A stretch of DNA of 64,000 bases, taken from the NCBI RefSeq assembly GCF_016863275.1, contig NZ_BOOO01000004.1, positions 372,001 through 436,000 of the forward strand, written 5' to 3'. A program made the translations under genes and the position numbers. Below the pieces are notes generated by a model. The model was not told where the DNA came from. It was given only the letters and a program-made list of their open reading frames with translations, and searched no databases. Positions 4,166 through 61,238 of this stretch are shown here, piece after piece. How positions within the stretch are numbered: position 1 is the stretch's first letter; every line of letters starts with the position of its first letter. This DNA is from Planotetraspora mira (GTDB taxonomy: Bacteria; Actinomycetota; Actinomycetes; Streptosporangiales; Streptosporangiaceae).

Positions 4166-6397
4166 GTGCCGGATCCCCGTCCGCTCAATCCGGGGGCACC
4201 CGGCCAGATAGCGGGTTACCGACTGACAGGGTTGCTCGGCCAGGGCGGGCAGGGCGTGGTGTATCTCGGGATCGCCCCCTCCGGGGGGAAGGTCGCCGTC
4301 AAGGTCCTGCACGCGTGGATGTCGGAGGACGCCGACGCGCGCAGGCGCTTCCTGCGCGAGGTCGAGATCGCCCGCCGCGTCGCGCCGTTCTGCACCGCGA
4401 GGGTGCTGGACGCCGGCCTCCACGACGACGGGCCGTACATCGTGAGCGAGTACGTCCCCGGGCCGTCCCTGGACCAAGTCATCAGAGAGTCGGGCCCGCG
4501 AACCGGTGGCGGCCTGGAGCGTCTGGCAGTGGCGACCGTGAGCGCCCTGGCCGCGATTCACCGGGCCGGCGTCGTGCATCGCGACTTCAAGCCCGGCAAC
4601 GTCATCCTCGGACCCGAAGGTCCGGTCGTGATCGACTTCGGCATCTCCCGGGCCAACGACCACACCGTCACCCGATCCGGATCGGTCGGCACGCCTGGCT
4701 ACATGTCGCCCGAGCAGTTCACCGGAGAGACGGTGAGCCAGGCGTCGGACGTGTTCAGCTGGGCGGCCACCATGGTCTACGCGGCCACAGGGCATCGCGC
4801 GTTCACCGGCGACACGGTCCCCGCCGTGCTCAACGCCATCCTGCACCGGGAGCCCGATCTCTCCGGAGTTCCGGACGATCTCCGTTCCCTGCTGGCCACC
4901 TGCCTGTCGAAGGACGCCGGCGTCCGGCCGACCGCGTCCGAGCTCCACCGCACGCTCACGGGTGACAGCGGCCATGCCGCCACCCTGATCGCGCCCGCCC
5001 CGCCCCGGCCTGCTCCGACGGCCCCGTTACCGGTCCCCGGCGAGGCTCGGAGCACCGGCCCGGCACAGACACAGGCCGCGGACCAGCCGCAAGGCCCGGA
5101 CCCGGCACAGACACAGGCCGCAGACCCGGCACAAGGGCCGGACCCGGCAAAGAGCGCCGACTCGGCCCAGACGCGGCCCGCAGAGCCGCACGAGACGCGG
5201 TCACCCGAGCCCGATGAGGACGCCACCACTCCCGTGCGTCCCGCCGGCCCGGCCACTCGGCCGTCACCAGACGGCCGGCCGTCCCGGCGCCGCGCGCTGG
5301 TGGCGGGAGGCGGCGCGCTCGTCGCCGTGGCGGCGGCCCTGACCCTGCCGTCCCTCCTCCGCGGAGACGACGGCGAGCCGGCGACGCGGAAGACCACGAC
5401 CCCGTCGAGCCCGTCCGGCGCCGCCCGTACGGCACCGCCCTTCGGCACCCCCTTGTACGAGCCTGTGGCCGGGCATTCCGACGACGTCCGATCGGTGGCC
5501 CTGAGCCGGATCGACGGCACCCCCGTCGCCCTGACGGGCAGCGACGACGACACGGCCAGAATCTGGGACCTCACCGACGGGACGCCGATCGGGGCCCCGT
5601 TCGAAGGCCACACGGGCTGGGTGCGATCCGTCGCGTTCGTGGCCGTCGGGGCGGCCCAGGTCGCCGTCACCGCGAGCGACGACACGACCGTGCGCGTCTG
5701 GGACATCACCACGCACGAGGAGCTCGGCAGACTCACCGGGCACACCCAGCCCGTCAAGGCGACGGCCGCCGGAGACCTCCGCGGCACGCCGATCGCCGTC
5801 ACCGGCGGGCAGGACAAGGTGGTCCGAGTCTGGAACCTCGCGAATCACCGCCCGCTCGGCGACCCGCTCTCAGGCCACACCGCCACCGTGTGGTCGATCG
5901 CCCTCGGCATGCTGACCGGCACGCCCGTCGCCGTCACGGCGAGCGACGACGGCACCGTACGCGTGTGGAACCTGACCACCAGGCAGCAGATCCGCTCCAT
6001 GGCCGCGGGCGGAGGCGGAGGCGTGCGCGCGCTGGCGATCTACGAACTCGACGGTGTCACCTACGCCGTCACCGGCGGCCAGGACGCGGCCGTCCGGGTC
6101 TGGAACCTCTCCACGGGGGCGCAGGCCGGTCCCACGCTCACCGGGCACAGCGGCCCGGTCTGGGCCCTCGCCGCCGGCGACCTGAACGGGACACCCGTCG
6201 CGGTGTCGGGCGGCGAGGACGGAACCGTCCGCGTCTGGAACCTCGGGACCGGACGGCCTCTCGGATCCCCGTTCCTGGGGCACGACGACAGGATCTGGTG
6301 TGTCGCCTTCGGGGATCTGGCCGGCGACCCGATCGCGGTCAGTGGCGGACGCGACAACATGATCCGGGTCTGGAGCCTCGCCTCGCCTCCCCGATGA
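4166..6397 (+). CDS. Transmembrane Ser/Thr protein kinase with C-terminal WD40 propeller
   Basis: The start is set at GTG 4166 because GAGGGG lies five bases upstream; a GTG two codons earlier overlaps that site. Residues 18-265 are a Hanks-type kinase: GQGGQGVVYLG loop, VAVK (Lys46), HRDFKPGN (Asp140), DFG (Asp157-Gly159) and GTPGYMSPEQ. A Pro/Ala/Gln-rich linker holds two 42-bp coding repeats, then comes one membrane helix (about residues 370-395). The extracytoplasmic C-terminus has seven WD40 units, each with a GH start and a (R)(I/V)W(D/N/S)L end, enough for one seven-bladed propeller. This suggests ligand sensing outside and phosphorylation inside. All catalytic residues are present. 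Substrate unknown. Confidence 0.93.
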   Translation: MPDPRPLNPGAPGQIAGYRLTGLLGQGGQGVVYLGIAPSGGKVAVKVLHAWMSEDADARRRFLREVEIARRVAPFCTARVLDAGLHDDGPYIVSEYVPGPSLDQVIRESGPRTGGGLERLAVATVSALAAIHRAGVVHRDFKPGNVILGPEGPVVIDFGISRANDHTVTRSGSVGTPGYMSPEQFTGETVSQASDVFSWAATMVYAATGHRAFTGDTVPAVLNAILHREPDLSGVPDDLRSLLATCLSKDAGVRPTASELHRTLTGDSGHAATLIAPAPPRPAPTAPLPVPGEARSTGPAQTQAADQPQGPDPAQTQAADPAQGPDPAKSADSAQTRPAEPHETRSPEPDEDATTPVRPAGPATRPSPDGRPSRRRALVAGGGALVAVAAALTLPSLLRGDDGEPATRKTTTPSSPSGAARTAPPFGTPLYEPVAGHSDDVRSVALSRIDGTPVALTGSDDDTARIWDLTDGTPIGAPFEGHTGWVRSVAFVAVGAAQVAVTASDDTTVRVWDITTHEELGRLTGHTQPVKATAAGDLRGTPIAVTGGQDKVVRVWNLANHRPLGDPLSGHTATVWSIALGMLTGTPVAVTASDDGTVRVWNLTTRQQIRSMAAGGGGGVRALAIYELDGVTYAVTGGQDAAVRVWNLSTGAQAGPTLTGHSGPVWALAAGDLNGTPVAVSGGEDGTVRVWNLGTGRPLGSPFLGHDDRIWCVAFGDLAGDPIAVSGGRDNMIRVWSLASPPR
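5059..5142 (+). repeat. Two tandem 42-bp repeats in the kinase linker
   Basis: Units 5059-5100 and 5101-5142 each begin CCCGGCACAGACACAGGCCG and encode an AQTQAAD-type Gln/Ala/Pro-rich peptide. They lie in the flexible linker between kinase domain and membrane helix, so copy-number change would alter linker length without breaking the frame. Confidence 0.8.
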
Positions 6398-13419: not shown

Positions 13420-15129
13420 TCAGTCGAGGTAGTCCCGCAGAACCTGGGAGCGGGACGGGTGACGGAGCTTCGACATGGTCTTGGACTCGATCTGGCGGAT
13501 GCGCTCACGGGTGACCCCGTAGACCTTGCCGATCTCGTCAAGAGTCTTCGGCTGTCCGTCGGTGAGACCGAACCGCATCGAGACGACGCCCGCCTCCCGC
13601 TCGGACAGCGTGTCCAGAACGGAGTGCAGTTGCTCCTGCAGCAGCGTGAAGCTGACGGCGTCGGCCGGGACGATGGCCTCGGAGTCCTCGATCAGGTCGC
13701 CGAACTCGCTGTCACCCTCCTCACCCAGAGGAGTGTGCAGGGAGATGGGCTCGCGGCCGTACTTCTGGACCTCGATGACCTTTTCCGGGGTCATGTCCAG
13801 CTCGCGGGCCAGCTCCTCCGGCGTGGGCTCCCGGCCGAGGTCCTGCAGCATCTGCCGCTGGACACGGGCCAGCTTGTTGATCACTTCGACCATGTGGACC
13901 GGGATGCGGATGGTCCGCGCCTGGTCGGCCATGGCCCGGGTGATCGCCTGCCGGATCCACCACGTGGCGTACGTCGAGAACTTGTAGCCCTTGGTGTAGT
14001 CGAACTTCTCGACCGCACGGATCAGGCCCAGGTTGCCCTCCTGGATCAGGTCCAGGAAGAGCATGCCGCGGCCGGTGTAGCGCTTGGCGAGCGACACGAC
14101 CAGACGGAGGTTGGCCTCGAGCAGGTGGTTCTTGGCCCGGCGGCCGTCCTCGGCGATCCACTCGAGCTCGGCCCGCACATCGACGGGAAGCTGCTCGCCA
14201 TCGCTGGACAGCTGCTCCTCGGCGAACAGGCCGGCCTCGATCCGCTTGGCGAGCTCGACCTCCTGCTCGGCGTTGAGGAGCGGGACCTTGCCGATCTGCT
14301 TGAGGTAGTCCTTGACCGGGTCCGCGGTGGCACCCGCGGCCGCGACCTGGGCCACCGGCGCGTCATCGTCGTCGTCGGTGAGGATCAGGACCTCATCGTC
14401 GGACTGGACGACGACCTCGGCCTTGGGCTCGTCGGTCTCGGCCTCCGCGTCAGGCTCGGCCTCCGCGTCGGGCTCGGCGTCCGCCTCGACCTCCAGGTCG
14501 ACGTCCTCGACCTCCAGGTCGAGGTCCTCGATCTCGACATCGGCCTCGAGGTCGAGATCGTCCTCGTCCTCGGACGCGTCGGCGGACTTGGCCTTCGCGT
14601 CGGCCTTGGTCACCTTGGACTCGGGCCCGTTGGCGGGCGCGTCCTTGGCCCCGGGCTTGGCCCCCGGCGCGGCCTTCTTGGCGGCCGCCTGCGCGGGCGC
14701 CTTCGCCGGAGCGGGCTTTGCGGCTCCGGGCTTGGCGGCCGGCTTGGCGGGCGCCTTCTTGGCCGCGGGCTTGGCCGCCGGCGCGGAGTCGGTCACCACG
14801 GCGGTGACGGTCTCCGGCTGCGATTCCTTGGCCGCGGCCGACTTGGTCGTCGTCTTCTTGACGGGCGCGGTGGTGCGACGCTTGGCTTGACCTCGGGACC
14901 GCTTCGGCGCCGCGGAGTCAGCAGCGGTGACCACGACGGTCACACCCTCTTTGCTGAGGCTGCGCAGGAATCCAGCAGCGTGCGACAGCGGGATGTCCGC
15001 TTCCTCGAAGGCCTTGCGGACATCCTCGGACTCGAGGAAACCCTGCGAGCGCCCACGCTCGAGGAGCTGCTGAATCACTGGCTCGTTCAGCTCCGACGGC
15101 TTCGAGCGAGTCGAACTTGCAGGCGACAC
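13420..15129 (-). CDS. sigA: Principal RNA polymerase sigma factor (HrdB/SigA type)
   Basis: The GTG at 15129, with GAGAGG six bases upstream, gives 569 residues beginning SPASSTRSK; upstream in-frame codons are non-coding in character. Residues 15-75 are the HrdB-type N-terminal region 1.1 ([18 protein letters not shown]). Then come a Lys/Ala/Pro-rich stretch and a run of acidic repeats ([19 protein letters not shown]). Region 1.2 ([16 protein letters not shown]), region 2 ([46 protein letters not shown]), region 3 ([11 protein letters not shown]) and region 4 ([21 protein letters not shown]) are complete. It directs housekeeping transcription. Final residues VLRDYLD are typical of the group 1 factors. 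Confidence 0.96.
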
Positions 15130-54044: not shown

Positions 54045-54398
54045 ATGAACAAGTTCGTTCACGTGATGCCGCTCGACGACGTCATCAGCCATGAGGGCAC
54101 GCCGGACTGCATCTGCGGCCCGGCGGGGCAGATCGTGAGCGCGGCGGACCTACTGGAGGACCCGGACCTCGACGGCGTCGTCGACCCGGACGACCTGACC
54201 GACTCCGACGGCCGGGGACTTCTGGACGGGGAGGACCCCGTGGACGCCACCTACCTCGACTGGGATCGGGCGGACGGCCTGGAGCAGGCGGACGACGATG
54301 ACCCGGAGGGAGACCCCCGCCTGGCGGTCTGCATCATCATCTACCACCACTACGCGCTGCGCCCCTGCCACGAATGGGAAGCCTCCCCCGAGCCCTGA
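54045..54398 (+). CDS. Acidic small protein, phage/actinomycete hypothetical type
   Basis: The 117-residue protein is preceded by a perfect AGGAGG. It starts MNKFVHVMPLDDVISHEGTPDCICGP, similar in pattern to small proteins of actinophages and actinomycetes (a VxPxDDLxxH...DCxCGP start and a basic/HH end). It then has an unusually acidic middle (DLDGVVDPDDLTDSDGRG, DDDDPEGD), and the end CIIIYHHYALRPCHEW matches the family's HH motif. Function unknown. It is 40 bp from the start of the 53-bp repeat array. Confidence 0.7.
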   Translation: MNKFVHVMPLDDVISHEGTPDCICGPAGQIVSAADLLEDPDLDGVVDPDDLTDSDGRGLLDGEDPVDATYLDWDRADGLEQADDDDPEGDPRLAVCIIIYHHYALRPCHEWEASPEP

Positions 54399-54402
54399 CC
54401 CA

Positions 54403-54437
54403 CCCCCCCGCCGTGACCAAACCCCCGCCGTGACCAA
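54403..54437 (+). repeat. 17-bp direct repeats at the array edge
   Basis: ACCCCCGCCGTGACCAA occurs at 54421-54437, with a near-identical copy ending at 54420, and the next 17 bp (from 54438) start the first full array unit with the same CCCCC[G/A]CCGTGA phrase. These look like truncated copies of the array unit's start. Confidence 0.65.
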
Positions 54438-54939
54438 ACCCCCACCGTGATCATGCGCACATTCGGCAGCAGCCCACCCGACCTGCCCAAACCCCCACCG
54501 TGATCATGCGCACATTCGGCAGCAGCCCGCCCGACCTGCCCAGACGCCTTCCGTGATCACGCATACCCTCGCAAGAAGGGCCTCTGACCAGCGCATTCAC
54601 ATCTGGCGATCATGCGAACATTCAGAAGAACACGCCCCGACCTGGCCGTACACCGGTGGTGATCATGCACGCAAGGGTCACGGGGGGCGACCCGCACCGA
54701 TCACGCCGGGGGTCGGCGCCCGTTTCGGCTCGTGCCGTACGGCTGGCGAGGCATTCCGTGCATGATCACGGATGAGGCTCGGCCAGGTCATCCGGCAGGC
54801 GCACGAATCTGCGCATGATCACGACAGGCCTTGCCGCAGGTGAGCGGACACTCCCCGAAGGCGTGCATGATCACGACGGGGATCGGGGCAGGCCAGGTGG
54901 GCTGCTGCCGAATGTGTGCATGATCACGCTCAAGGGAGG
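54438..54939. repeat. Phased 53-bp repeat array with TGATCA cores, inverted halves
   Basis: No gene is visible here. Cores lie at 54448, 54501, 54554, 54607 (CGATCA), 54660, 54763, 54816, 54868 and 54921 (first base of TGATCA). Steps are 53, 53, 53, 53, 103, 53, 52 and 53 bp. The first five units read GTGATCATGC (variants at units 3 and 4) and the last four read GCATGATCAC, so orientation flips near 54,710. The first and last units match over about 45 bp when one is reversed (GCACATTCGGCAGCAGCCC-type body). An extra CGATCA at 54698 is off register. The TetR gene's 3' end abuts the array. Confidence 0.9.
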
Positions 54940-55542
54940 TCAGGGGAAGGCGCGGAGGGCGATTTCTACGGTGCGGGTCAGTTCCTCGCGGGTGGCGCCG
55001 GCGGAGGCGTGGACGGCCAGGCCCTCCGACACGGTCATGATGTAACGGGCGAGGTCGTCGGGATCGTTCTCGGGGCCAAGGTCACTGTCCTCGATCGCAC
55101 GGCGGAACCGGTCGCGCATCGCGAGTTCCCCGCCCTTGCGCGCGAGGGCGAGGGTCGCGGTCACCTCGGCGTTGTCGGGCCCGCAGGACAGGCCGCCCTG
55201 AATGGAGAAACACCCCGGCGGCCGGTCCGGCGTGGTCACGGCCTTGGCGTTCTCCCGCAGGAAGGTCTCGGCGACCCCCCTGGCGGTCGGCGCGGCCAGG
55301 GCGTCGCGCGCGTAGGCCATGTCGACCTCGGCGTAGCGGACGAGCGCCTTGCCGAACAACTCACGCTTGTTGCCGAACGCGGCGTACATGCTGGTCTTGT
55401 TGATGCCCATGGCCTCGGTGAGGTCGCTGAGCGAGGCGCCCTCGTAGCCCTGACGCCAGAAGACCTCAAGCGCCCGGTCCAGCGCCGCGTCGGCGTCGAA
55501 TCCGCGAGGCCGGCCGATCACGGCCCGTCCAGTGCTGCCCAT
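54940..55542 (-). CDS. TetR/AcrR family transcriptional regulator
   Basis: The 200-residue protein starts MGSTGRAVIGRPRGFDADAALDRALEVFWRQGYEG, the beginning typical of the YxaF/LmrA-like group, with HTH GASLSDLTEAMGINKTSMYAAFGNKRELF. The C-terminal ligand domain contains CFSIQGGLSCG. It is divergent from the SDR gene. The 22-bp palindrome in the spacer is its likely operator, controlling itself and the SDR/LLM genes. Confidence 0.93.
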   Translation of the reverse strand: MGSTGRAVIGRPRGFDADAALDRALEVFWRQGYEGASLSDLTEAMGINKTSMYAAFGNKRELFGKALVRYAEVDMAYARDALAAPTARGVAETFLRENAKAVTTPDRPPGCFSIQGGLSCGPDNAEVTATLALARKGGELAMRDRFRRAIEDSDLGPENDPDDLARYIMTVSEGLAVHASAGATREELTRTVEIALRAFP

Positions 55543-55565
55543 GCCTTCAGGATAGCCAACGAGAA

Positions 55566-55575
55566 ACCGATCGGT
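55566..55575. promoter_or_regulatory. Secondary TetR half-site palindrome
   Basis: ACCGATCGGT matches the core of the 22-bp palindrome at 55608. The pair are 42 bp apart centre to centre between divergent genes, near four helical turns. Confidence 0.65.
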
Positions 55576-55607
55576 ACACAAGTCGTCCGCGCAGTGCTAT
55601 GGTCTTT

Positions 55608-58988: not shown

Positions 58989-61100
58989 CTATGTGCGGAC
59001 CACCGCCACCCCTCCGGGCGGGACGGTGGCGGATCCCCGGTGTTCCACGCCGTCGAGCAGGCCGGTTCCCGTGACGCCGGGAACGGTGACCGGCCGGTCG
59101 GCGTGGTTGATGAGGAAGAGGTGGGCACCACGGCGGACGACCTCGACGTCCTCGGGGACGCCCGCGAGCCGCCGTACACCCGCGTGGTCGAGCACCTCGC
59201 GGAGCAGCCCCCGCAGGCCGTACGGATCACGCGAGCCGGAGCCGTGAGCCTCGTCCGTCGCGCCGTGACCATCGCCGTCCGTCGCGCCGTGACCATCGCC
59301 GTCCGTCGCGCCGTGACCATCGCCGTCCGTCGCACCGTGGACCTCGCCGAGGGCGGTGGCGACGTACCAGGCCGCGCCGGCTCCGAGGTCGTGCCTGGTC
59401 ACCGCGGGGTGGCCGGCGTCGGGGCCGTCGGCGAACGTCCACACGGGCGTCGCCTCTCTGACGCGAACGCGCTCGGACCAGATGCGGCCGACGGATCCCT
59501 CGATCCCGGTGGCGGGAGTGACGGTGACCGTGCCGTGCTCGCGGAGCGGATGGAACTCCTCCACCGACAGGCCGAGCACCTCGCGGAGCACCCCCGGGTA
59601 CGGCCCCCCGTGGATCGTGTCGTTCTCGTCGACGATGCCGGAGAAGAACGAGACGAGCAGGTGACCGCCGGCCTCGACGTAGCGGTGCAGGTTCTTGGCC
59701 GACGCCTCGGTGAGCAGGTACGCGCTGGGCGCGACCACCAGCCGGTACGCCGACAGGTCGGCCGACGGGTGGACGAAGTCGACGGTGACGTGCTCACGCC
59801 AAAGGGCGGCGTAGAACGCCCCCACCCGCTCCCGGAACCGCAGGTCCGTGGAGGGCCGCCACTCCAGTTCGAGCGCCCAGTAGGACTCCCAGTCCCAGAT
59901 GACGGCGACGTCCGCCTCGACCCGCGAGCCGCGGACGGGGGCCAGCCGGCCGAGGTCGGCTCCCAGGTCGACGACGTCCCGCCAGACCTCGGAGTCGGTC
60001 CCGGCGTGGGGCACCATCGCCGAGTGGAACTTCTCCGCGCCGTGACGCGAAGCGCGCCACTGGAAGAACATCACCGAGTCCGAGCCCCTGGCGACGTGCG
60101 CGAGGCTGTTGCGCCGCATCTCCCCCCGGCGTTTGGCGAGGTTGCGGGGCTGCCAGTTGACCGCGCCCGTCGAGTGCTCCATGAGCATCCACGGGCGGCC
60201 GCCGGCGACCGAGCGCGTGAGGTCCGCCGCCATCGCCAGGTCGATGTGGGCGTCGGGTCCCTCCGCGTCGAGGTAGTGGTCGTTCGCGACGACGTCGACC
60301 TCGGCCGACCACCGCCAGTAGTCCATGGGCTTGCAGTTGGGGATCATGAAGTTGGTGGTGACCGGCAGGTCGCTGAACCGCCGGACAGCGGCCCGTTCCC
60401 GCCGGTAGTTCGCTATGTGGGTGTCGACGGAGAAGCGCATGAAGTCGAGTTGGAGTCCGGTCAGCAGGCCGACCGGGGCGAGCACCGGCGGCTCGATCTC
60501 GTCGAACGAGCCGTAGGTCAGCCCCCAGAACGTGGTCCCCCAGGCCGCGTTGACGGCTCCGATGTCCCCGTAGCGCTCCCGCAGCCAGGCACGGAACGCC
60601 TCCGCCGAGGTCGCGCAGTAGCAGTGCGCGTTGGCCCAGCCGTACTCGTTGTGGACGTGCCACATGGCCAGCGCCGGATGCCCGGCGTAGCGTTCGGCCA
60701 GCCGTACGGCCACGCGTTCCGAGGCGGCGGCGTAGTGGGGTGAGCTGGGGCAGAAGCTGTGGCGGGTGGCTCCGCCGAGCACGCGGCCCTCCCGGTCGAC
60801 CAGCCGGCTTCCCGGGTAGCGGTTGCGGAACCACACGGGGGGTGAGGACGTCGGCGTCGCGAGGTCGACCATGATGCCCTCGGTGTGCAGGAGGTCGAGG
60901 ATCCGGTCGAGCCGGTCGAAGTCGTACACGTCCTCCGCGGGTTCGATCAGCCCCCAGTTGAAGACGCCGACCGTGACCAGGTTCACCCCGGCCTCGCGCA
61001 TCAGCCGGACGTCCTCCTGCCACACCTCCTCCGGCCACTGCTCGGGGTTGTAGTCCCCCCCGTATGCCAGGCCATCGGGCAGGACGGGATATCCAGGCAA
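58989..61100 (-). CDS. GH42 beta-galactosidase
   Basis: TTG 61100 is taken as start because GAGGG(GG) lies about six bases upstream and the protein then begins LPGYPVLPDGLAYGGDYNPEQWP, the family's N-terminus; a GTG at 61151 would add 17 residues. The 703-residue protein has acid/base Glu in MWHVHNEYGW, nucleophile Glu in LMEHSTG and a trimerisation-type C-domain. A Gly/Asp/His repeat, four HGATD copies, occurs near residue 600. It removes galactose from galacto-oligosaccharides, the product of GH53. No signal peptide. Confidence 0.93.
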   Translation of the reverse strand: MPGYPVLPDGLAYGGDYNPEQWPEEVWQEDVRLMREAGVNLVTVGVFNWGLIEPAEDVYDFDRLDRILDLLHTEGIMVDLATPTSSPPVWFRNRYPGSRLVDREGRVLGGATRHSFCPSSPHYAAASERVAVRLAERYAGHPALAMWHVHNEYGWANAHCYCATSAEAFRAWLRERYGDIGAVNAAWGTTFWGLTYGSFDEIEPPVLAPVGLLTGLQLDFMRFSVDTHIANYRRERAAVRRFSDLPVTTNFMIPNCKPMDYWRWSAEVDVVANDHYLDAEGPDAHIDLAMAADLTRSVAGGRPWMLMEHSTGAVNWQPRNLAKRRGEMRRNSLAHVARGSDSVMFFQWRASRHGAEKFHSAMVPHAGTDSEVWRDVVDLGADLGRLAPVRGSRVEADVAVIWDWESYWALELEWRPSTDLRFRERVGAFYAALWREHVTVDFVHPSADLSAYRLVVAPSAYLLTEASAKNLHRYVEAGGHLLVSFFSGIVDENDTIHGGPYPGVLREVLGLSVEEFHPLREHGTVTVTPATGIEGSVGRIWSERVRVREATPVWTFADGPDAGHPAVTRHDLGAGAAWYVATALGEVHGATDGDGHGATDGDGHGATDGDGHGATDEAHGSGSRDPYGLRGLLREVLDHAGVRRLAGVPEDVEVVRRGAHLFLINHADRPVTVPGVTGTGLLDGVEHRGSATVPPGGVAVVRT
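59251..59340 (-). repeat. 24-bp tandem repeat inside GH42
   Basis: Three full 24-bp units (59261-59284, 59285-59308, 59309-59332, unit CGCCGTGACCATCGCCGTCC + GTCG) and a partial copy on either side lie in frame and encode HGATDGDG repeats. They sit in a linker between the beta-galactosidase domains, so unit number may vary between strains. Confidence 0.85.
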
Positions 61101-61119
61101 AGCTCCCCCTCGACTTGTT

Positions 61120-61135
61120 CTGTGAACGTGCACAG
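61120..61135. promoter_or_regulatory. Regulatory box A between GH42 and ABC genes
   Basis: CTGTGAACGTGCACAG, with arms CTGTG/CACAG. It matches box B in 14 of 16 bases. It lies close before the GH42 start and is of LacI-type size and centre. Confidence 0.7.
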
Positions 61136-61238
61136 TAATCGAGCCGCCCACGCGAGAAAAGAGTCGCCGCCAACATCGCAGATCAACGCGTCAGTTAACG
61201 ACAATGTAACGAGCATTGACACTCGCAGACCGGGATTC

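What the first reader, a model, noticed from the sequence alone, without database searches (positions are those of the whole stretch)
54399..54939. Array of nine GATCA cores phased at 53 bp (five helical turns)
The only large gene-free stretch in the window holds nine TGATCA/CGATCA cores at 54448, 54501, 54554, 54607, 54660, 54763, 54816, 54868 and 54921. Seven of the eight steps are 52-53 bp, and one is 103 bp (about two steps). At 10.5 bp per turn, 53 bp is five turns, so all cores face the same side of the helix. In DNA this GC-rich, a rough chance estimate is about 0.03 TGATCA per 541 bp, while eight exact copies are seen. Whole units, not just cores, are repeated. This looks like a binding platform for a protein (nucleoid organiser, conjugation/partition factor or regulator) or the remnant of a mobile repeat, and I know no described element with this form.
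Basis: partly seen in the sequence, partly recalled or inferred. Interest (0 to 1): 0.85.

Follow-up and report, generated by a model that had tools for sequence, protein, structure and literature searches.

The report
Gene-end arrays of a repeated motif
The nine evenly spaced DNA motifs are one of many similar two-armed arrays that sit mostly at the ends of genes in this soil bacterium and its relatives, apparently as landing sites for a still unknown DNA-binding protein, and I found no description of them in the papers I could search.

Summary
The genome, a Planotetraspora relative, has hundreds more: 641 core pairs at 52-54 bp, none for the reversed control. In 856 kb, 151 of 156 exact cores lie in such arms. 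In orthologous elements the core differs at 1.6% of positions, the spacers at 33%, flanking sequence at 15.8%. The motif is kept while spacers drift. No target-site duplication and no recent copying between elements were found. Several genera share the design with their own dialects. Spacing is 53 bp in most Streptosporangiaceae carriers, 41 bp in one genome, and irregular in three genomes of other families, so five-turn phasing is a lineage trait, not the essence. Best explanation: binding arrays for an unidentified, lineage-specific DNA-binding protein that marks or insulates gene ends. Protein binding is inferred from sequence alone; the transcription-boundary role is inferred from position and is weaker. 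A trans-driven selfish repeat is the main rival.

The parts
54399..54446 (+). C-rich leader between the stop codon of the 117-aa gene and the first core, with degenerate 17-bp GTGACC repeats
   Evidence: Sequence; TRF rows 54392-54443 and 54405-54450; array-flanked gene ends are 54% C and 16% G at +1..+15 (24 ends) against 38% and 32% at 311 other ends
54447..54499 (+). Left arm unit 1 (53 bp)
54500..54552 (+). Left arm unit 2 (53 bp), 48 of 53 identical to unit 1
54553..54605 (+). Left arm unit 3 (53 bp), core GTGATCACGC
54606..54658 (+). Left arm unit 4 (53 bp), core GCGATCATGC
54659..54668 (+). Left arm innermost core
54669..54759 (.). Centre between the opposed arms, G+C-rich, with short self-complementary stretches
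54760..54769 (-). Right arm innermost core
54770..54822 (-). Right arm unit 3 (53 bp)
54823..54874 (-). Right arm unit 2 (52 bp)
54875..54927 (-). Right arm unit 1 (53 bp), outermost, 45 of 53 identical to left unit 1
54928..54939 (-). Short leader between the right arm and the stop codon of the TetR-type gene
54045..54398 (+). Convergent flanking gene, 117 aa, no Pfam family at E 0.001
54940..55581 (-). Convergent flanking gene, TetR-family regulator
   Evidence: Pfam TetR_N E=1.2e-11

Best explanation
The array is one member of a genome-wide set of cis-acting DNA elements placed mainly at gene ends. Each arm is usually 3-6 direct repeats of a two-box site (GTGATCATGC plus a lineage-specific suffix, then TGACCTG from position 33). 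A sequence-specific DNA-binding protein, not identified, is inferred to bind the units of an arm side by side. In the 53-bp and 41-bp lineages the bound units would lie on roughly one face of the helix. Two arms often face each other across a short centre. Shown here: architecture, copy number, oriented arms, rigid spacing with drifting spacers, purifying selection on the boxes, dialects, a gene-end preference. Inferred: that a protein binds, that it binds cooperatively, and that the bound array acts as a transcription boundary (roadblock or insulator) between neighbouring, especially convergent, genes. Arrays appear to lengthen and shorten by whole units through local copying.
For: Selection on the boxes, over 16 orthologous element pairs in which the partner still has an array: core 13/821 mismatches (1.6%), positions 11-15 80/307, TTCG 19/245, GACCTG (34-39) 52/361, spacers 277/794 and 249/798, flanks 721/4560. 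Spacing held while spacers drift: of 142 same-strand steps up to 250 bp in 856 kb, 110 are 53 bp, 2 are 52, 22 are 18/19 and 34/35 steps in equal numbers that sum to 53, and 8 are other. Indel runs inside elements include 53 (5 times), 106 (2) and 265 (1) among 26 runs. No base-pair covariation inside the unit: the strongest dependencies are one or two positions apart, and the few longer-range pairs just above the 99.9% null (e.g. 22-30, 15-36) show no Watson-Crick excess. Dialects shift genome-wide, as expected for sites that follow one trans-acting factor: G001 has 729 core pairs but only 16 matches to the G000 suffix; its five arms read have GCAGAASTTCGG. In Microbispora G187, with no arrays by two patterns, two of nine compared sites keep spacer remnants with mutated cores. 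Gene ends: convergent 38, tandem 48, divergent 11 of 97 elements against 18.5, 60, 18.5 expected from gene-pair frequencies.
Against: No binding protein identified, and no expression or binding data. Irregular spacing in G122, G432 and G491 shows that phasing is not needed everywhere. Eleven of 97 elements lie between divergent genes. The 97 include named loci chosen because they hold an array; in the 856 kb of G000 alone the departure is not significant (24 elements, p=0.12; divergent against rest p=0.064). Single arms in tandem regions lean to the sense strand (22:9; 19:8 without G003), which an RNA-level role would also predict. Mirrored units are somewhat more alike than non-mirrored ones, which hairpin selection would also predict (0.408 against 0.379 in 54 elements; 0.450 against 0.386 in the 14 of G000).
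Confidence: 0.5

Rival explanations
1. A selfish or non-autonomous interspersed repeat, spread and kept up by an unidentified trans-acting enzyme, as REPs are proposed to be by RAYT transposases. Core conservation would then reflect what the enzyme recognises, with no host function.
For: Patchy presence among close relatives: the 3-unit pattern hits 5 of 15 g65 (Microbispora) genomes, while one gene next to a G188 array is 93-96% identical in the four other carriers and 92-95% in six non-carriers (87% in two more, no full match in one). Clean empty sites (27841 in G002; L163 and L165 in G187). Position right after stop codons. Local duplication of units and arm-to-arm near-copies.
Against: No target-site duplication at 27 elements (mean 2.30 against 2.47 shuffled). 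No two elements in 856 kb share spacer segments at 80% (0 of 3506 pairs). Y1_Tnp does not track arrays: missing in 7 of 13 carriers tested and present in 5 of 7 non-carriers; no other transposase family was searched. Eight long-gap arm pairs enclose genes that by eye are ordinary. Ten of 11 sites in one 340-kb stretch are still occupied in G003, two of these judged by position only.
Confidence: 0.25
2. An RNA-level 3'-end element: the C-rich leader loads Rho, or the inverted arms form a long hairpin that ends or protects transcripts.
For: C-rich, G-poor leader at array-flanked gene ends. The window element folds as RNA with z=-10.6. Very C-rich spacers in G122. Hairpin-like sequence follows some single arms, one kept in G187. 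Sense bias 22:9 of single arms in tandem regions. Excess similarity of mirrored units, reached by few or no shuffles for units 2 and 3 from the centre in four Planotetraspora genomes together.
Against: 10 of 24 elements in the 856 kb have one arm only, so no arm-arm hairpin. The excess similarity of mirrored units is small and partly due to a few near-copies. No within-unit pairing covariation. 9 of 31 single arms in tandem regions read antisense and 11 of 97 elements are between divergent genes. Rigid 53-bp spacing has no obvious RNA reason.
Confidence: 0.15
3. A DNA uptake-type signal: a short motif recognised in natural transformation, enriched by biased uptake, with lineage dialects.
For: Shared core with lineage dialects, and inverted pairs near gene ends, as described for DUS (PMC3630211, passages). 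Decay where the system seems lost. Competence (ComEC-type) domain PF03772 in 21 of 21 genomes tested.
Against: In 856 kb the motif hardly occurs alone or in genes: 151 of 156 exact copies lie in arms of at least 3 units, 3 in coding sequence. PF03772 is present with and without arrays, so it does not discriminate. I recall no DUS arrays at fixed 53-bp spacing.
Confidence: 0.07

Closest known systems
REP / BIME elements with RAYT transposases
   Same: Over 100 extragenic copies, inverted arrangement, species-specific sequence, copy number that differs between strains, suggested protein binding and termination roles (PMC2817692, abstract and passages)
   Different: Unit is not a short palindrome; direct repeats inside each arm; rigid 53-bp unit; Y1_Tnp (PF01797) missing in 7 of 13 carriers tested
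DNA uptake sequences (DUS) of Neisseriaceae
   Same: Short core with family dialects; inverted pairs near terminators (PMC3630211, passages)
   Different: Nearly confined to intergenic multi-unit arms instead of many dispersed single copies
MIRU-type tandem intergenic repeats of mycobacteria (recalled; one search returned no paper)
   Same: Actinobacterial, intergenic, tandem, unit near 53 bp, next to stop codons (recalled)
   Different: As recalled, MIRU units are near-identical direct repeats; here spacers diverge freely, only boxes are kept, and arms face each other. Sequence comparison with MIRU was not run.
Iteron or centromere-like repeat arrays such as sopC of F (recalled)
   Same: Tandem protein-binding units
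   Different: Many chromosomal sites at gene ends, not one partition locus

Membership tests
REP/BIME with RAYT | Extragenic repeat in more than 100 copies per genome | tested here: met
   641 core pairs in G000; 151 of 156 exact cores in arms in 856 kb
REP/BIME with RAYT | Cognate Y1 (IS200/IS605-type) tyrosine transposase in genomes rich in the repeat | tested here: not met
   PF01797 missing in G000, G002, G003, G004, G062, G188, G183; present in carriers G001, G179, G185, G189, G037, G086 and in 5 of 7 non-carriers
REP/BIME with RAYT | Each unit a short palindrome with a GTAG-type head | tested here: not met
   Unit consensus GTGATCATGCACAGRTTCGG..TGACCTGCGC, no internal pairing covariation
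MITE / transposon ends | Target-site duplication | tested here: not met
   27 elements, mean flanking direct repeat 2.30 against 2.47 shuffled
MITE / transposon ends | Near-identical copies at different loci | tested here: not met
   0 of 3506 (G000) and 0 of 21862 (named loci) between-element spacer pairs at 80% or more; recent copies could still lie outside the 9.5% of the genome examined
DUS/USS uptake signal | Motif dispersed as single copies, also in coding sequence | tested here: not met
   3 of 156 exact copies in coding sequence, 151 in arms
DUS/USS uptake signal | Motif-dependent DNA uptake | not testable with these tools
   Needs transformation assays
MIRU | Sequence relation to MIRU units | not tested
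   No comparison run; similarity recalled only
Intrinsic terminator | G+C-rich hairpin followed by a U run, as the conserved part of the element | tested here: inconclusive
   Inverted arms fold strongly and some arms end in a hairpin-like stretch, but single arms lack the partner; no U-run scan was made
Protein-binding array | A protein that binds the unit specifically | not testable with these tools
   Needs pull-down or gel shift

The most novel reading that the evidence does not exclude
A chromosome-wide gene-end marking system of Actinomycetes: one 11-bp core (GTGATCATGCA) with a lineage-specific suffix, arranged as inward-facing multi-unit arms between genes, read by a co-evolving, still unknown DNA-binding protein. 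It is gained and lost as a whole between close strains, and it insulates neighbouring transcription units.
Probability: 0.25. Interest if true: 0.88.

Novelty: new variant of a known kind. Interest (0 to 1): 0.72.

Why it matters
If it is a binding system, some high-GC actinomycetes mark or insulate gene ends in a way that I know from no model of their transcription termination, and the unknown reader could be pulled down directly with a 53-bp probe. If it is selfish instead, it is a repeat family without a recognised transposase that keeps its spacing to the base pair.

Tried and rejected
RNA family: no Rfam hit in the window at gathering threshold; no tRNA. Coding repeat: 53 bp is not a multiple of 3. 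RNA hairpin inside the unit: not supported by mutual information (139 non-redundant of 403 units). Long arm-arm hairpin as the maintained feature: judged unlikely, although index-matched arms show some excess identity. Autonomous mobile element between arms: eight loci with arm gaps of 673-2947 bp hold genes that look ordinary by eye; no family search was run on them. REP/RAYT: rejected. Plasmid or phage carriage: no blastn match to the window array in either collection. Competence as a discriminator: PF03772 in 21 of 21 genomes, uninformative. Binding protein: not found; no gene-content comparison was made. Arrays outside the class: the stricter pattern hit only G000 and G122 among 198 genomes; it requires A at core position 11 and at most 40 bases between cores, so it misses 53-bp arrays and other dialects. 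The last search, meant to survey relatives of G122, found one genome only.

Literature: searches were seen as listings (15 of 249, 0, 15 of 348, 0, 10 of 12, 20 of 48, 2 of 2 and 8 of 30 papers). Passages were seen of PMC3630211 and PMC2817692; term look-ups in PMC4514598 and PMC11431748 found no repeat, palindrome or intergenic term in the main text. Subscription papers are mostly not held.

Dropped before counts: 19 elements within 600 bp of a locus end; six aligned orthologous pairs in which the partner had lost or replaced the array (22 aligned, core 138/1042 with them; 16); called genes covered mostly by arms; L048 and L111-L133, so the named-locus statistics use 79 of the 103 stretches. 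Gene-pair classes of G000 elements differ by one between two versions of my gene caller.

Full report
What is there. They are oriented: five GTGATCATGC cores on the + strand (54447, 54500, 54553, 54606, 54659; the third and fourth with one mismatch) and four on the - strand (54760, 54813, 54865, 54918). The element therefore has two arms that face each other across a 91-bp centre, and it lies between convergent genes: a 117-aa gene without a Pfam family at E 0.001, and a TetR-type regulator. The exact 10-mer occurs 7 times in 64 kb against 0.08 expected, all in the array.

It is one of many. The own genome (9.03 Mb, 100 contigs) has 660 matches to an 18-base form of the site and none to the reversed control, and 641 pairs of exact cores at 52-54 bp. 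In 856 kb taken mostly without regard to arrays (C1 1-340000 and C4 1-516000, about 9.5% of the genome, including the window and three C4 stretches first fetched because they held hits) there are 24 elements with arms of at least 3 units: 14 double, all facing inward, and 10 single arms. 151 of 156 exact cores lie in those arms, against 0.7 exact cores expected from base composition. Of 142 same-strand steps up to 250 bp, 110 are 53 bp and 2 are 52; 22 more are 18/19 and 34/35 steps in equal numbers that add up to 53, from an extra core-like GATC inside some units; 8 are other.

The unit. From 403 distinct 53-bp units the consensus is GTGATCATGC-AC-A-G-R-TTCG at 1-19, a weak middle, TGACCTGC at 33-40, and C at 53. 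Mutual information is strongest between positions one or two apart (44-45, 12-14, 14-15). A few longer-range pairs just exceed the 99.9% null, without Watson-Crick excess. Those arms were found with spacings of 51-55 bp, so the unbiased spacing count is the one.

Selection. G003 and G002 align with G000 over 302 and 306 of 340 kb at about 91% identity. Ten of 11 element sites are occupied in G003 (two judged by position, not by flank mapping), and six of 11 in G002 with shorter arms (one by position). At the same site the unit number differs, for example 4+5, 3+4 and 2+2, and one site is 16 bp long in G002 where G000 has 479 bp. Over 16 orthologous pairs where both keep an array, the core mismatches at 13 of 821 positions, positions 34-39 at 52 of 361, spacers at 277 of 794 and 249 of 798, and flanking sequence at 721 of 4560. 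The spacers change about twice as fast as the flanks, and the core about ten times more slowly. The window's own array is kept at its site in G004, G003 and G002 with different unit numbers; G001 and G062 had no full-length match to the TetR gene.

Origin and turnover. Between different elements no spacer segment pair reaches 80% identity (0 of 3506 in G000, 0 of 21862 in named loci), whereas units of one element reach 95-100% within an arm or across arms. Growth therefore looks local. There is no target-site duplication at 27 elements. Y1 transposases are missing in 7 of 13 carriers tested and present in 5 of 7 non-carriers; other transposase families were not searched. Eight long-gap arm pairs enclose genes that look ordinary by eye.

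Distribution and dialects. One search names five Planotetraspora strains and Microbispora sp. H11081 as carriers; both genera are Streptosporangiaceae. Within the family (341 genomes) the 3-unit GTGATC pattern hits 27 genomes. Thirteen are clear carriers: all five g1 genomes, G062, five of 15 genomes of g65 and both of g34. The other 14 have 1-2 matches that I did not check one by one. Microbispora G188 uses GTGATCTTGTAGTTTGTCGCA in the outer unit and GTGATC[A/T]TGCA inside, often around a central palindrome; g34 has its own form. G054 keeps the design at 41 bp with the second box reversed, and G053 has 1+1 palindromes. G001 shows the shift of dialect for a whole genome: 729 core pairs but 16 matches to the G000 suffix. 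Outside the family, among 197 genomes drawn evenly from the class (16 of them from this family), G122 (174), G432 (115), G120 (23) and G491 (13) carry many copies with other suffixes; all other non-family genomes have 0-3. There the spacing is irregular: 33-58 bp in G122, 34-68 in G432 and 31-35 in G491 in the loci read, wider in the listed matches of G491, and 22 in G120. So the core is shared across families while fixed 53-bp spacing was seen only in Streptosporangiaceae carriers. This counts against phasing as the essence. 53 and 41 bp are near 5 and 4 turns, but 37 bp, common in G122, is not near an integer.

Loss. Microbispora G187 has no arrays by two patterns, although sequence beside nine G188 elements matches it at 76-95% identity (12 sought). 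Two of these nine sites show remnants in G187 with recognisable spacer (L162, L166b) and mutated cores; the others show no clear remnant. This fits decay after loss of the factor that made the cores matter, on small numbers.

Place and strand. In the 856 kb, elements lie in 17 of 464 tandem, 6 of 143 convergent and 1 of 143 divergent gene pairs; the departure from random is not significant there (p=0.12). With the named loci, which were chosen for having an array, convergent pairs are enriched twofold (38, 48, 11 of 97). Of 24 arms that follow a gene end, the first core sits 11-26 bp after the stop in 14, and at -4 in six, where the GTGA of the core supplies the stop. A C-rich leader marks these ends. 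Single arms in tandem regions read sense 22 and antisense 9 times (19:8 without G003). The gene calls come from my own hexamer caller, not from an annotation.

How it may work. Seen in sequence: oriented arms, selected boxes, free spacers, rigid spacing in one group of lineages, dialects, gene-end preference. The simplest inference is a sequence-specific DNA-binding protein that covers each arm unit by unit. Its likely use at gene ends is to stop or insulate transcription between neighbours; that step is inferred from position only. A trans-driven selfish repeat remains the main rival, because patchy presence and empty sites fit it well. An RNA-level role is less likely, because single arms are common, mirrored spacers are only slightly more alike than chance, and some arms are antisense or in divergent regions. 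The sense bias, the C-rich leader and the small excess of mirrored similarity keep it open.

Known or new. It fails the tested defining features of REP/RAYT, transposon ends and DUS (see membership test). MIRU and sopC comparisons rest on recall. The listings held no description; most subscription papers are not in that library.

Noticed in passing
window 59252-59349: About four copies of a 24-bp tandem repeat (8 codons, GATDGDGH in the - strand reading) inside the ORF 58989-61151, which looks by eye like a beta-galactosidase; in frame, unrelated to the array.
   Followed up: no
window 5055-5153 and 14430-14782: Further tandem repeats of 42 bp and of 12-30 bp found by TRF.
   Followed up: no
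L278-L282 (G122): In five of six G122 loci read, the region between the opposed arms holds a second recurring inverted pair, about AGAATGCTGG ... CAGCATT.
   Followed up: no
L290:885-1268 (G120): Eighteen cores at 22-bp steps (GTGATCATGCAGCCGCTCGGCC) in a row: the same core as a minisatellite.
   Followed up: no
L224-L229 (G053): Single-unit inverted pairs, e.g. GTGATCATGCACTTATTCGC ... GCGAACAAGTGCATGATCAC, at several loci: a possible minimal form of the element.
   Followed up: partly
   Followed up: no
L162 from 7148, and L262: A hairpin-like stretch after a single Microbispora arm is kept in G187 although the array has decayed: perhaps a terminator independent of the array.
   Followed up: partly
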